NCBI GenBank assembly: GCA_009377605.1
Contig: WHTT01000074.1
Span: 1-32,608 of the forward strand
Source of the DNA: Luteitalea sp.
GTDB taxonomy: Bacteria; Acidobacteriota; Vicinamibacteria; Vicinamibacterales; Vicinamibacteraceae
Reading direction: 5' to 3'
Length of the DNA stretch: 32,608 bases
The notes beneath the pieces are model-generated. The model ran no database searches and had not been told where the DNA came from. It was given only the letters and a program-made list of their open reading frames with translations. The stretch's first letter is position 1. Each line of letters opens with the position of its first letter. The translations under genes and the position numbers were made by a program. This document shows positions 14,436 to 18,872 of the stretch, in pieces.

Positions 14436-15203
14436 TCACGCAGCCAGTTCTTGCCGCACTGCATCACGACTACCCCACACTACTGGCACGATGTCGTAGC
14501 TTCGCAAGGCATCCACGATGGACGTCGAAGGAGAGCGATTCTCGTCATTCAGGAACGCGTAGAATCTGGACGCTGCAGGACGGACCTCCTTCGTGTCGAT
14601 CCAGGAGAAGGCCAGGGATTCAGCAAGGTCTCGGCTCGGGCGATTGACGGCCCGGATGAGGCGTTCGGACGCTCGGCGTGAAGCGGGCACGACGAAGTCG
14701 AATGTGTGGTCGTAGCCGCTTCGACCGGTGAACTTCACATTTGGCGTGAAGCGAATGTCGTGCAGCTCGAGCCACGCGGTGACGTCCTCAAGGAACAGGC
14801 TCGCCACGACCGGGACGGCCAGATAGAACAAGTCGTTGACAGCGAGAATGGCTTGAACCAGGTTGTGCTTGCGTGGCGAGAAATCTTGCGGCGTTGCCTT
14901 CACGAGCATCGCGTCACCCTCACGTCGTATCCCGAATCCGTTGAGGGTTGAAGTGAGGAGATCCTTACGCTTCGACGTTTCAAGATCACAGCCGGCGGCG
15001 CGCAGGTCTTGAATCGTCTCGCCGCCATCGGTAAGCACGAATGCGCCATTGTCTCGGCGAACGTAGATTTGTGTGTAGTCGTTATGCCGGTCGAGGTAGG
15101 GAGTGGTGATCTCGACGTACTGGTCATTGACCTCGCGCAAGACACTCTTGTCCCGCACCCACTGCGCGTACTGGTCGAGTAGCCCACGAACTTCGTCGAT
15201 CAC
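14436..15203 (-). CDS. DUF1828/DUF1829 domain protein
   Basis: Protein of 255 residues. The N-terminal half (about 25-115) fits DUF1828: EITTPYLDRHNDYTQIYV, FVLTDGGETIQDLRAAG, GFGIRREGDAMLVKA. The C-terminal half (about 140-240) fits DUF1829: DIRFTPNVKFTGRSGYDHTF, AESLAFSWIDTK, DIVPVVWG. These domains usually occur together, often in phage or genomic islands; no biochemical role is established that I can name. The GTG at 15203 overlaps the upstream stop in a GTGA junction, so translation is coupled. The strand alternation with conserved Asp/Glu resembles a nuclease-like fold, but I cannot confirm this. Confidence 0.82.
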   Translation of the reverse strand: MIDEVRGLLDQYAQWVRDKSVLREVNDQYVEITTPYLDRHNDYTQIYVRRDNGAFVLTDGGETIQDLRAAGCDLETSKRKDLLTSTLNGFGIRREGDAMLVKATPQDFSPRKHNLVQAILAVNDLFYLAVPVVASLFLEDVTAWLELHDIRFTPNVKFTGRSGYDHTFDFVVPASRRASERLIRAVNRPSRDLAESLAFSWIDTKEVRPAASRFYAFLNDENRSPSTSIVDALRSYDIVPVVWGSRDAVRQELAA

Positions 15204-15649
15204 GTGAATAGGCCCCTTCGGATCTCCGGCGGCGCGGTGACATTCACGAACTGCATGAACTCTAACAGGAGCAGCCAAGAATCGCCAGGATTGCTGAACC
15301 GGCCCGACGGGAGCGGAACAGCCCAGCGATCGCCATAGCCCTCGCGGTAGAGGTGCAGATGTGGGCACGGAACCTCTTCGTCATCGGGATTGCGGTGAGG
15401 AGCTCCGTCGAAATCGAGGCGGGCAAGGATGACCACACTCCTCGCCCTGTTCTGGTAAGTGCCCTTAGTGAGCTTTACCTGGCTCCGGGTGATGTCGAGA
15501 AAGAACGACTCGCGTTTGTCTGGACTCTGCAACGGGACACGAACTGCGCCTCCGAGGCTCGGGTACTCATGAATGCTGTCGTCTATCCTATGCTTCTCCA
15601 TCGCCAAGAGCGCATCCGCGTCGGATTGCGTGAGGTTGATGTCTGCCAT
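15200..15649 (-). CDS. DUF6978-like protein, partner of the DUF1828 gene
   Basis: Protein of 149 residues. Conserved-looking stretches are LTQSDADALLAMEKHRID at the N-terminus, GTYQNRARSVVILARLDF, GAPHRNPDDEEVPCPHLHLY and REGYGDRWAVPLP. The PCPHLHLYREGYGD block, with paired His and nearby acidic residues, could bind metal. From memory this matches a family called DUF6978 that is often found just upstream of DUF1828 genes; treat the name as provisional. The ATG at 15649 has AGGAG 5 bases upstream. With its coupled partner it forms a two-gene cassette that may be mobile or defensive; that is inference from context only. Confidence 0.75.
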   Translation of the reverse strand: MADINLTQSDADALLAMEKHRIDDSIHEYPSLGGAVRVPLQSPDKRESFFLDITRSQVKLTKGTYQNRARSVVILARLDFDGAPHRNPDDEEVPCPHLHLYREGYGDRWAVPLPSGRFSNPGDSWLLLLEFMQFVNVTAPPEIRRGLFT

Positions 15650-15779
15650 GTCGTCTCCTAGCCCTCGCAGAACCCCTCGCACGATGCCCCTTCGAAGGGC
15701 CACGATTCTTTCCCGTTCCGTGCCACGCCCAACTTGGCTTCACAGAAGCATACTCCCACGGTTTGGCATCACATCGAAC

Positions 15780-16074
15780 GGCAGTAGCGCCTACGCCACT
15801 GTGACGATCGGCCTGGCACTAGCCTCGTCTGCGCCCACGAAGCATTGCGGCCACAGTCCGCGAAAATGCTCTCTGAGGTCCGCGTCAGATGCGACGGTCT
15901 TCCTATTGGCGCTAACCGGCCCGCTGATGTGGCGACCAGTATCAAGTGCGTCAGCCGGTCCCTCATCGCATCGGAGGTTGTCGGGTATCCCAACTCTGTG
16001 ACGAGTTGACCAACGTCGTCCGCATCACCAATAACCGCGTTTCGGATGTCCGCGCCAGCCAACTTCATATCCAT
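15780..16074 (-). pseudogene. Degenerate GNAT N-acetyltransferase remnant
   Basis: The first 50 or so codons look like the start of a GNAT acetyltransferase (ADIRNAVIGDADDVGQLVTE, then LGYPTTSDAMRDRL and LILVATSAGRL). After that, where the acetyl-CoA binding motif (R/Q-x-x-G-x-G/A) should follow, the sequence runs into unrelated Arg/Ser-rich residues and stops. An alternative frame continues with SDADLREHFRGLWPQCFVG but is not GNAT-like either. No clear ribosome binding site precedes the start. I read it as a truncated and frame-disturbed copy. Confidence 0.45.
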
Positions 16075-16267
16075 GATGAGCGTTCAATTCGCCTGACGGC
16101 CTGACGGCGCGCCGACTCGGCGAGCCCGGCGCCGTGTCCGCCTTTGGGACGAGGCTGTTCGGCAGCGCACAAGAGAACGGTGGCCTTTCGTCTACGGTCC
16201 CAAGAGACCGTGTGCACGTCTAGATGGTACGGTACGTGCTTTGTCGAGGTCTCAAGAACTCGAGGAC

Positions 16268-16285
16268 TCGTCGCAACTGCGACGA
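16268..16285. promoter_or_regulatory. Inverted repeat upstream of the ABC permease
   Basis: TCGTCGCA-AC-TGCGACGA has perfect 8-base arms with a 2-base centre, 75 bases before the permease start. Permeases of this type are commonly controlled by PadR-like repressors that bind such dyads; no PadR gene is seen in the window, so the role is open. Confidence 0.35.
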
Positions 16286-16359
16286 CTCGCTTCTCGGTTG
16301 GTGGTGCTCTTCCGGAAGGGCCACCTTCGGCACCACGCTGGTTCGCGAGGGAGGGCCAG

Positions 16360-18872
16360 ATGAAGAAGCGCTACCAGGGTAGCCGGGGACTGGCGTGGCT
16401 CGAGGATCTCGCACGCGACATGCGATACGGCATGCGGACGCTCGCGAACGCACCGCGCTACGCGGCCGTGGCGATCCTGACGCTCGCGCTCGGGATTGGG
16501 GCGACGACAGCGCTCTTCACTGCTGTCCGGGACGTGCTGTCGCGAAGCCTGCCGGTCGAACGCCCAGAGGAACTGATCGAGCTGGGGTGCGTCAACCCGC
16601 TAGCCGACCCTAGCGACGCAGGCCGTTGCAACACCTCCTTTGCCGGAGTCAACATGTATGGCGCCGATCGAGACGTCGTTGCAGGCGCCTTCGCGTTTGC
16701 ACCCATCGACGACATAGGCTTGTCGTATCGCGGTGTCTCCGAGATCGCGCACGGTATGCTCACGTCCGGCGAGACGTACGGCGTGCTCGGCGTTGTCCAT
16801 ACCTCGGGCGGCTGTTGGTCCGTGCGGACGACCGCACCGGAGCGCCGCTGGTCGCCGTGTTGAGCCATGCTTACTGGCAGCGGCAGTTCGGGGGCGACGC
16901 CGCCATCATCGGACAGTCGATCCGGCTAAACCAACAACCTGCCACCATTGTCGGCGTGACGCCGCCGGCGTTTCGCGGGCTGACCCTTGGCGATGAGGCC
17001 GATGTCACCGTGCCACTTGCCAGCGCGGACCTGTTTCGCGGGCGCGGCACGATTGGCAACCGGAACAACTGGTGGCTCCGCGTCATGATCAGGCGGAAGC
17101 CGGATGTCACGATGGCGCGTGTGAAGCAGACGCTGGAGCCGGTGTTCCACCGCACGGTTGACGAGATGCTTGCATCAGCGCCGCCGCAGTTCGCGCGAGG
17201 CATTCGAGAGTTTGCCGGCCAACTGCGCTTTGACGTGCGCTCGGCGGCTACGGGGTCGGCATCGGCGTTCCGGCAGTCGCTGGATCGGCCGCTGCGGATA
17301 CTGATGGGGACAGTCGTCATCTTCCTCCTGATTGCCTGCGCGAACCTGGCAGGGCTGATCGCCTCGCGCACGATGAGCCGTAGCCGAGGGCTCAGCCTCA
17401 GGCTCGCGCTCGGCGCAACGCGCTCGCGACTGGTTCGGCAGACGCTCGCCGAAAGCGTGTTGCTCGCTGCCATTGGAGGTGCGCTGGGTCTGGTCGTCGC
17501 GCAGTGGGTGGGCCCCGCCTTCGTCCAACTTCTCGCTGGCGACGCGGGCCTCCTCGCCGTTGATCTGCGGCCAGACGGCTGGGTGCTCACGTTTGTTGGG
17601 TCGGTGTCGGTCCTGACAGGTGTCGTCGCCGGGATGGGCGCGCTCGTGCGTGCGGCGCGAACCGACCCGCAGGAGGCGCTGAAGAAGACCAAGGGGCAAG
17701 TCCGGAATTCGCTATGGGGAAGGGTACTGTTGGCCGGGCAGTTTGCTCTGAGCGTGATGCTGCTGATGGGCGCAGCGCTCTTTCTGCAGACACTCGCGAA
17801 CTACCGCGGTTTGAATCCTGGATTCGCCGTCGAAGGACGCATCGTCGCGAGCGTCGCGCCGCGCCTCGCGGGGTACGACGAGGACAAGCTGCTCCCGTAT
17901 CTCAACGGCATCGTCGAACGGCTGGAAGCGGTGCCGGGCGTGCAGTCCGTGACGTTCTCGGGGTCTACGCTAGGCAGCCTGGACGCTACGACACTCGTGG
18001 AATTGCCCGGCTTCGAGGCGGCGCCAGCGGAAGCGCGGGAGACCGGCCGGAATTCGGTTGGGCCGCGATTTATCGAAACCGCCGGGCTCCGCCTGCTGCA
18101 CGGACGAGGCATAGGAGCCAACGATACTCCGACGTCCGAGCGTGTCGCGCTGGTGAACCAGACATTCGCGCGCCACTTCTTCGGCACATCGAATGCGGTC
18201 GGCCAGCGGTTTCGGCTCATTGGTCAGCGGACGGCCCACACGATTGTCGGGGTCATCCGGGATGCACGCGACCGGGGCGTGACGGAGCCGTCTCAACGCA
18301 TGGTTTACGAGGCGTTCTCGCAGAGTCCAGATATGAGGCCAGCGATCACGGTTCGGAGCACACCAGACCTGGCGAACCCGGTGCCCGCCGTTGAGCACGT
18401 CATTCAGCAGAGCGATCCTGCTGTACCGGTTCGCGGCGTTCGGCTGCTTGCAGCCGACATGGACGCGCGACTGCGTCGAGAACGTGTGCTCAGCCTCCTG
18501 ACCACCTCGTTCGCCGCGCTGGCGCTGCTACTCGTGGCCATAGGTCTCTATGGCACGCTCAGTGGCATCGTGGTGCGCCGGACGTCAGAGATTGGCATCC
18601 GCATGGCGCTCGGATCCACTGGGAGCCGCGTAATATGGCTGGTGACGCGCGGCACGCTGGGATTCGTCATCTGCGGCCTCGCCGCCGGGATTGCCGGAGC
18701 GTTTGCGCTCACCCGCCTGATTCAGAGTCAGCTCTATGAGGTGTCGGCATCCGATCCAAAGATTGTCGCCGTCGCCCTTACCGTGCTCATGACTGTGGCT
18801 CTTTGCGCCGCCGTCCCGCCGGCACGGCGGGCGTCACGCGTCGATCCGATTGCGGCGCTGCGCGAAGAATGA
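16360..18872 (+). pseudogene. ADOP-type ABC permease with a single-base frameshift
   Basis: Inner-membrane permease of the MacB/FtsX type found as long orphan genes in Acidobacteriota. Frame 1 runs from ATG 16360 (GGGAGGG upstream) through LARDMRYGMRTLANAPRYAA, LTLALGIGATTALFTAV and GETYGVLGVV. The reading then continues only in another frame with PYLGRLLVRADDRTGAPLVA, AVLSHAYWQRQFGG, FtsX domain 1 (VVIFLLIACANLAGLIASR), MacB domain 2 (GQFALSVMLLMGAALFLQT) and FtsX domain 2 (GLYGTLSGIVVRRTSEIGIR), ending DPIAALREE. One missing base near 16797 (CGTTGTCCAT) explains the break. Repaired length would be about 837 residues, normal for the family. The rest is intact, so this is a recent mutation or a sequence error. 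Confidence 0.85.

What the first reader, a model, noticed from the sequence alone, without database searches (positions are those of the whole stretch)
14436..15649. Coupled DUF6978-like and DUF1828/DUF1829 pair of unknown function
Two genes with a GTGA overlap encode families of unknown function that tend to travel together in phage and island regions. Strict coupling suggests they work as a complex. A defence or toxin-antitoxin role is possible but unproven. The PCPHLHLYREGYGD motif in the first protein is a candidate metal site.
Basis: inference. Interest (0 to 1): 0.5.

Follow-up and report, generated by a model that had tools for sequence, protein, structure and literature searches.

The report
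Toxin-antitoxin-like phage-defence gene pair
Two overlapping bacterial genes belong to an already listed but untested phage-defence candidate (PDC-M24) that often sits inside restriction-enzyme operons and in prophages, and that most likely works as a poison-and-antidote pair, although nothing was tested at the bench.

Summary
On the minus strand a DUF6978 gene (A, 15649-15200) overlaps a DUF1828-DUF1829 gene (B, 15203-14436) by GTGA. Both match PADLOC candidate PDC-M24 (1e-55, 7e-97), a term found in no paper searched. Defence linkage of the family is strong: of 80 B-anchored genome loci, 40 have type I HsdS upstream and/or HsdR downstream within 1.5 kb on the same strand; 44 of 73 scorable loci are hsd-associated, in 18 named phyla. 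Five prophage-type records among eight fetched carry the pair between the repressor/HTH region and the integrase. The window itself shows no hsd or other defence gene in 20 neighbouring ORFs scanned. B models as a chaperone-like domain plus a restriction-endonuclease fold lacking (D/E)xK. A is a confident, unrecognised fold with invariant histidines. A was not seen without B (0 of 26); B lacked an intact A in 9 of 77 genome loci; some phage contigs carry DUF1828 alone. Best reading: toxin-like A restrained by antitoxin-like B, about 50%. Polarity, toxicity and target are inferred.

The parts
15200..15649 (-). Gene A, 149 aa, DUF6978 / PDC-M24A; proposed toxin-like effector
   Evidence: model pLDDT 93.4
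14436..15203 (-). Gene B, 255 aa, DUF1828-DUF1829 / PDC-M24B; proposed antitoxin-like regulator
   Evidence: model pLDDT 91.9, pTM 0.52
15200..15203 (-). GTGA overlap of A's stop and B's start
   Evidence: sequence; 4-nt overlap in 58 of 68 relatives
15347..15397 (-). Conserved stretch of A, residues 85-101 (HxNPD ... HxHxY), candidate active or metal site
   Evidence: conservation
14814..15203 (-). B residues 1-130, DUF1828, secretion-chaperone/YbjN-like fold
   Evidence: Z 6.8-9.2
14439..14813 (-). B residues 131-255, DUF1829, restriction-endonuclease fold without the (D/E)xK motif
   Evidence: (Z up to 11.9)

Best explanation
The pair is a complete, solitary copy of PDC-M24, a two-gene defence module that most likely works as a toxin-antitoxin or abortive-infection unit. 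Shown: the two genes, their coupling, the family's repeated placement between hsdS and hsdR of type I restriction operons and in prophage lysogeny modules, the two-domain build of B in a model, and the conserved His-rich stretch of A. Inferred: A is the toxic effector, probably an RNase-like enzyme using residues among Arg77, His85, Asn87, Asp89, His97, His99 and Tyr101; B restrains it through its chaperone-like DUF1828 domain, while the nuclease-fold but apparently non-catalytic DUF1829 domain binds nucleic acid to sense or regulate. Where nested in an hsd operon the pair would be a second line released when a phage disables restriction, as PrrC is in EcoprrI. In this genome it stands alone, so its trigger would have to be something else, such as loss of B.
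For: PADLOC PDC-M24A/B. Near neighbours (136 of 242 ORFs, cut to 480 aa): Pfam HSDR_N 20, Methylase_S 17, PADLOC REase_I 20, Specificity_I 19 at 1e-10; in 136 of 196 far ORFs of the same loci neither REase_I nor Specificity_I is among the 25 families shown of 69. Order hsdS-A-B-hsdR on one strand; the label changes at least 15 times on the B tree, at least 5 forced by supported branches. Prophage position. A not seen without B, B seen without A, as expected if A is the harmful partner. DUF1829 also occurs in DS-6B, partner of a HipA-like kinase in a system that defends against phage (PMC13092281, passages); in a related HipA/DUF3037 pair deletion of the DUF3037 gene was toxic (PMC12548924, passages). 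Ntox24 is the only second Pfam family recurring in A: 22 of 90 members at E up to 1, best 0.0077.
Against: No toxicity or phage assay of this pair was found. The Ntox24 link is weak: 12.7 bits against a cut-off of 24, profile comparison probabilities 12.5% and 1.5%. A has no recognised fold. A nuclease fold in B fits an effector role for B as well. In three viral loci A and B are convergent (L115, L117, L144), so a shared transcript is not required. No hsd or other defence gene was found in the 20 neighbouring ORFs scanned in the window. A- and B-anchored counts come from differently drawn samples, six of the 11 A-anchored viral contigs are the same as B-anchored ones, and some missing or short A genes may be assembly errors in metagenome bins.
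Confidence: 0.5

Rival explanations
1. B is the effector: its DUF1829 domain is a working or unusual PD-(D/E)XK nuclease, and A is the sensor or restraining partner.
For: Restriction-endonuclease fold, with Can2, Card1, PspGI and BstEII among the best matches. Asp169 (D 83, E 9 of 98), Glu180 (86 of 98), Arg/Lys181 (97 of 98) and Glu139 (86 of 98) are conserved.
Against: No (D/E)xK: position 182 is hydrophobic. B persists without an intact A in 9 of 77 genome loci. Phage contigs with DUF1828 alone lack DUF1829.
Confidence: 0.2
2. A and B form one defence complex that acts on phage nucleic acid directly; neither is toxic alone and both are needed, so it is not a toxin-antitoxin pair.
For: Conserved 4-nt overlap, joint placement in type I restriction operons, nucleic-acid-type fold in B. 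DS-5 in PMC13092281 is a two-gene system in which losing the partner did not unleash toxicity (passage).
Against: B without an intact A in 9 of 77 genome loci would be useless under this model unless those copies are decaying.
Confidence: 0.18
3. The pair is mainly a selfish addiction or maintenance module of prophages, plasmids and restriction operons, or a regulator of restriction, without a direct anti-phage role.
For: Presence on plasmids and between repressor and integrase in prophages; the solitary copy here has no recognised defence neighbour.
Against: Regular position inside hsd operons in many phyla and DUF1828-only proteins in phage contigs are better explained by phage conflict.
Confidence: 0.1

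Closest known systems
PDC-M24 (PADLOC phage defence candidate)
   Same: Both proteins match its two components over nearly full length, in the same order
   Different: Nothing found; this is a member. No paper with the term PDC-M24 in the library searched; the preprint behind the PDC names is recalled, not held
DS-6 / HipAD / PDC-M66 (HipA-like kinase with a DUF3037-type protein)
   Same: Two-gene unit; DS-6B carries DUF1829 (PMC13092281, passages); defends against phage
   Different: First gene here is DUF6978, not a kinase; second gene has DUF1828 in place of DUF3037
PrrC of EcoprrI
   Same: Suicide gene embedded in a type I restriction operon (PMC3874165, passage); its exact slot between hsdS and hsdR is recalled
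   Different: Two genes, no PrrC match in the Pfam scan; the copy in the window is not next to recognised hsd genes
Ntox24 polymorphic/TA toxin domain
   Same: Described as all-beta with Y, H, H and found in toxin-antitoxin systems (PMC3482391, passages); 22 of 90 A proteins match weakly
   Different: Below the Pfam cut-off; profile comparison does not confirm kinship
DarTG and the phage antitoxin AdfB
   Same: Precedent for a phage protein acting as antitoxin against a TA defence (PMC11481870, abstract)
   Different: Unrelated proteins; the role of DUF1828-only phage proteins is only proposed here

Membership tests
PDC-M24 | PDC-M24A and PDC-M24B profile matches | tested here: met
   1e-55 (residues 5-148 of 149) and 7.3e-97 (5-255 of 255)
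PDC-M24 | Two genes adjacent on one strand | tested here: met
   GTGA overlap
PDC-M24 | Protects against phage | not testable with these tools
   no assay possible; no paper for the term
Type II toxin-antitoxin | Toxic protein neutralised by its partner | not testable with these tools
   operon layout fits; toxicity and neutralisation cannot be tested here
Type II toxin-antitoxin | Harmful partner not kept without the antidote | tested here: inconclusive
   A without B 0 of 26 (13 genome, 11 viral of which 4 identical, 2 plasmid); B without intact A 9 of 77 genome loci; differently drawn samples
Ntox24 (PF15529) | Score above the curated cut-off | tested here: not met
   12.7 bits against 24 for P0001; best E among 90 members 0.0077
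PD-(D/E)XK fold (DUF1829) | alpha-beta-beta-beta-alpha-beta core | tested here: met
   topology; 1y88 Z 11.9, 110 residues, 3.0 A, with nucleases next; a predicted model
PD-(D/E)XK nuclease, canonical active site | D ... (D/E)xK | tested here: not met
   Asp169 conserved, but after Glu180 position 181 is Arg/Lys and 182 hydrophobic
Type III secretion chaperone / YbjN-like fold (DUF1828) | Overall fold | tested here: inconclusive
   Z 9.2, 8.3, 7.9, 6.8 over 102-107 residues; the domain was not predicted or searched alone
PrrC-like embedded effector | Gene inside a type I restriction operon | tested here: not met
   no hsd match in 20 window ORFs scanned; met in 44 of 73 scorable relatives
HipAD / DS-6 / PDC-M66 | HipA-like kinase and DUF3037 | tested here: not met
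   neither in the Pfam scan of the two proteins

The most novel reading that the evidence does not exclude
PDC-M24 is a portable toxin-antitoxin 'dead-man switch' that has come to lie, many times over, in the same slot of type I restriction operons, with a toxin of an undescribed fold; phages answer it with stand-alone DUF1828 proteins that act as antitoxin decoys. Seven such proteins (matched or full lengths 119-163 aa) keep most of the domain's conserved core, and in the eight records searched whole no DUF6978 or DUF1829 match was found, while two control records gave both. In the contigs whose neighbours I read, they lie among genes that look by eye like phage recombination, nuclease and methylase genes.
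Probability: 0.25. Interest if true: 0.7.

Novelty: new member of a known kind. Interest (0 to 1): 0.42.

Why it matters
If right, a widespread but untested defence candidate gains a concrete, testable design: which gene kills, which domain restrains it, where the active site lies, and why it is so often wired into restriction operons. It also names a possible phage counter-measure (DUF1828-only proteins) that can be tested directly, and it links DUF1829 to two different partners (DUF6978 here, a HipA-like kinase in DS-6/HipAD).

Tried and rejected
Ntox24 membership of A was considered for a weak Pfam match and dropped as a claim (the unrelated control comparison of A with B gave 0.14%). No named fold could be given to A: Foldseek best E 0.043, VIA-align best Z 4.9, an OspA sheet. 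Searches of solved-structure sequences with both proteins and both profiles gave nothing; NCBIfam gave nothing. A fused A-B alignment meant for a complex model appeared to place the A rows wrongly (identities of 7-23% where about 40% was expected) and was not folded; so no complex was modelled. A viral search from one Ntox24 domain found no relative. The empty-site test was only partly informative: sister genome G001 shares sequence with the window up to the end of the GH106 gene (13813), with no match beyond it in the 13 kb compared, so no clean insertion boundary was found; a first attempt through the histidine kinase gene gave no wider synteny.

Rows dropped: three of 80 genome loci (L021, L034, L052) begin at or near B and were left out of the A-presence count; the A match in G415 (below cut-off, stops inside) and G010 (A at one contig end, B at another) were left out of the A-anchored count; L065 (a 121-aa HsdR-like ORF only) was counted as not hsd-associated, and eight of 81 tree rows had too little flank to be called 'no', which slightly favours the hsd share. 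L121 and L149, two further DUF1828-only viral loci, were not searched as whole records. The PADLOC methylase profile PDLC03019 matched 17 near ORFs, but only 2 have Pfam N6_Mtase, so I do not count it as evidence for hsdM. The far control set is not free of defence genes: it has mad3 4, pAgo-type 3, SoFic 1 and type III and type I methylase 1 each. Pfam was not run on the far set.

Literature: 'DUF1828' two papers, neither opened; 'DUF6978'/'DUF1829'/'PDC-M24' two papers, of which one was read in passages and one not opened; 'PDC-M24' alone none; a search for genes between hsdS and hsdR returned irrelevant papers; the RloC paper was read in one passage and gave no prr gene order. PMC11514479 was read in passages and lists other PDC systems, not this one.

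Full report
What is there. The window encodes, on the minus strand, gene A (15649-15200, 149 aa) and gene B (15203-14436, 255 aa) with a GTGA overlap. A is DUF6978 (E 2.6e-42, 144.7 bits against a cut-off of 29.6); B is DUF1828 plus DUF1829, both well above cut-off. Both match PADLOC's candidate system PDC-M24 (1e-55 and 7.3e-97) and phage-protein families of unknown function (phrog_21094 9.9e-12, phrog_5059 1.4e-63). The genome has one match to B. The pair's G+C is 58.7% against 64.3% for the window.

Setting in the window. On one side lie GH106 rhamnosidase, MFS transporter and TonB-type receptor genes, on the other a MacB/FtsX-type permease gene. Twenty neighbouring ORFs were scanned against Pfam and none is a restriction, integrase or other recognised defence gene; ORFs that I did not pick were not scanned. 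The sister genome G001 shares sequence up to the end of GH106 (window 13813) and no match follows in the 13 kb compared, so the region with the pair is not shared there, but no clean boundary was found.

Relatives. A scan of GTDB genomes found 286 B relatives among 303 pattern matches, the best 80 kept; IMG/VR gave 49 loci, phage records 17, plasmids 10. The 80 genome loci fall in 24 named phyla, with 3 in Methanobacteriota. A is found upstream of B on the same strand in 72 of 80, in four of which it is only a short piece (L024, L026, L084, L091); of the other eight, three begin at or near B. In 58 of 68 pairs with A of at least 120 aa the overlap is exactly 4 nt. In the window's phylum the families are rare: DUF6978 above cut-off in 9 of 396 genomes, DUF1829 in 7 of 396.

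Defence context. Of 136 nearby ORFs (from 242), 20 match HsdR and 17 HsdS domains in Pfam, and 20 and 19 match the PADLOC type I restriction and specificity profiles at 1e-10. Among 136 ORFs (from 196) more than 6 kb away in the same loci neither of the latter is among the 25 families shown of 69; that set does hold some defence genes (mad3 4, pAgo-type 3). With profiles grown from one HsdR and one HsdS, 21 of 80 loci have S-AB-R within 1.5 kb, 11 AB-R, 8 S-AB and 40 neither. HsdR hits downstream (43 loci) are all on the strand of the pair; exceptions to the order are L021 (HsdS downstream; the contig begins near B), L031 (HsdR upstream) and a 95-aa HsdR-like piece upstream in L043. In 16 loci the hsdR frame opens at or within the last codons of B (distance -42 to 0 nt). 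On a tree of B the hsd label (44 of 73 scorable, 18 named phyla) needs at least 15 changes against a shuffled mean of 23.1 (0 of 500 shuffles as low), with at least 5 forced by supported branches: clustered, but changed repeatedly. The closest relative, L021 (85% identical in B), has HsdS and HsdR on its contig; the next, L022, has neither detected. Other recurrent neighbours are nucleotidyltransferases (8 and 5), DUF3644 (4), Abi_C (3), Fic (3), DarT (2) and RhuM (2).

Mobile context. Eight records were fetched. In five (four phage records and one prophage-like plasmid record) the pair lies between the repressor or HTH region and the integrase (A found by profile). On IncP plasmid pRSB223 and Acetobacter plasmid pAOF1 it lies some kilobases from integrase, resolvase or transposase genes. 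On a Lactobacillus intestinalis plasmid B stands without A.

Which partner needs which. Each A that could be scored has B beside it: 13 of 13 genome copies (for the matches; 44, 110, 119 for B), 11 of 11 viral loci (8 non-identical, 6 on contigs also found through B) and 2 of 2 plasmid records. B lacks an intact A in 9 of 77 scorable genome loci: none in L023, L063, L066, L083, L100, a short piece in L024, L026, L084, L091. Some of these may be assembly errors. All 40 viral loci with full-length B have an A match (fragmented in L101); the other 9 of 49 have a DUF1828-only match and no A. For eight records with DUF1828-only proteins (seven of the nine, plus L184) whole-record searches found neither DUF6978 nor DUF1829, while two control records gave both; the records may be fragments, and four of the eight carry proteins 91-100% identical to one another's reference.

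Structures. A models at pLDDT 93.4 and pTM 0.89, mostly strands with two helices, without a convincing relative among solved structures. Its most conserved residues (Lys19, Arg68, Arg77, His85, Asn87, Pro88, Asp89, His97, His99, Tyr101) lie largely on two successive strands and the loop between them; that they form one pocket is inferred from strand order, as coordinates were not inspected. B models at pLDDT 91.9 but pTM 0.52: two domains of uncertain mutual orientation. Residues 131-255 have the restriction-endonuclease fold (1y88 Z 11.9, 3.0 A over 110 residues; then PspGI, Can2, BstEII, Cdn1, EndoMS), but (D/E)xK is absent. Residues 12-131 resemble secretion chaperones and YbjN (Z 6.8-9.2), a weaker match.

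Mechanism. The one-sided dependence, the nesting in restriction operons, the DUF1828-only phage proteins and the sharing of DUF1829 with a HipA-like kinase system (PMC13092281, passages; AlphaFold3 there predicted DS-6B to bind both the kinase and DNA) favour a toxin (A) held by an antitoxin-like regulator (B). Zhang et al. 2012 describe Ntox24 as all-beta with Y, H, H, found also in toxin-antitoxin systems and conceivably a metal-independent RNase (PMC3482391, passages); 22 of 90 A proteins match it weakly, but profile comparison does not confirm kinship, so it is a lead only. In EcoprrI a latent suicide nuclease embedded in a type I operon is held by the enzyme and released on T4 infection (PMC3874165, passage); the same logic may apply to hsd-embedded copies, but not, as it stands, to the window's copy.

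Verdict. What is added here is the regular hsdS-A-B-hsdR placement, the modelled folds of B, the one-sided dependence of A on B and the phage DUF1828-only proteins. Toxicity, target and protection remain untested.

Noticed in passing
window 16144-18872 (+): A MacB/FtsX-type permease seems split over two overlapping frames (16144-16863, no Pfam match at 0.01 but MacB-like by eye, and 16626-18872), suggesting a frameshift or an assembly error.
   Followed up: no
window 15769-16074 (-): Short ORF that reads by eye like the start of a GNAT acetyltransferase (recalled; no Pfam match), possibly a broken gene beside the pair.
   Followed up: no
L115, L117, L144: In three viral loci A and B are convergent with touching 3' ends, so the pair can be kept without co-transcription.
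   Followed up: no
L023:8457-14398: B without A sits between HsdS plus a 122-aa ORF (DUF4268-like by eye) and HsdR, as if A had been replaced.
   Followed up: partly
L066:1827-4336: Intact B without A, followed by a nucleotidyltransferase/HEPN-like pair (by eye) and a second, degraded B match.
   Followed up: no
L169 (G389): B matches in two separate frames (open frames of 135 and 497 codons) and no A match is found.
   Followed up: no
L018:5953-6774: A Lactobacillus intestinalis plasmid carries B without A, about 2.5 kb from a Fic-family gene.
   Followed up: no
far neighbours of L021-L100: ORFs more than 6 kb away include mad3/mad8-type and argonaute matches, so some loci may be wider defence islands.
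   Followed up: no
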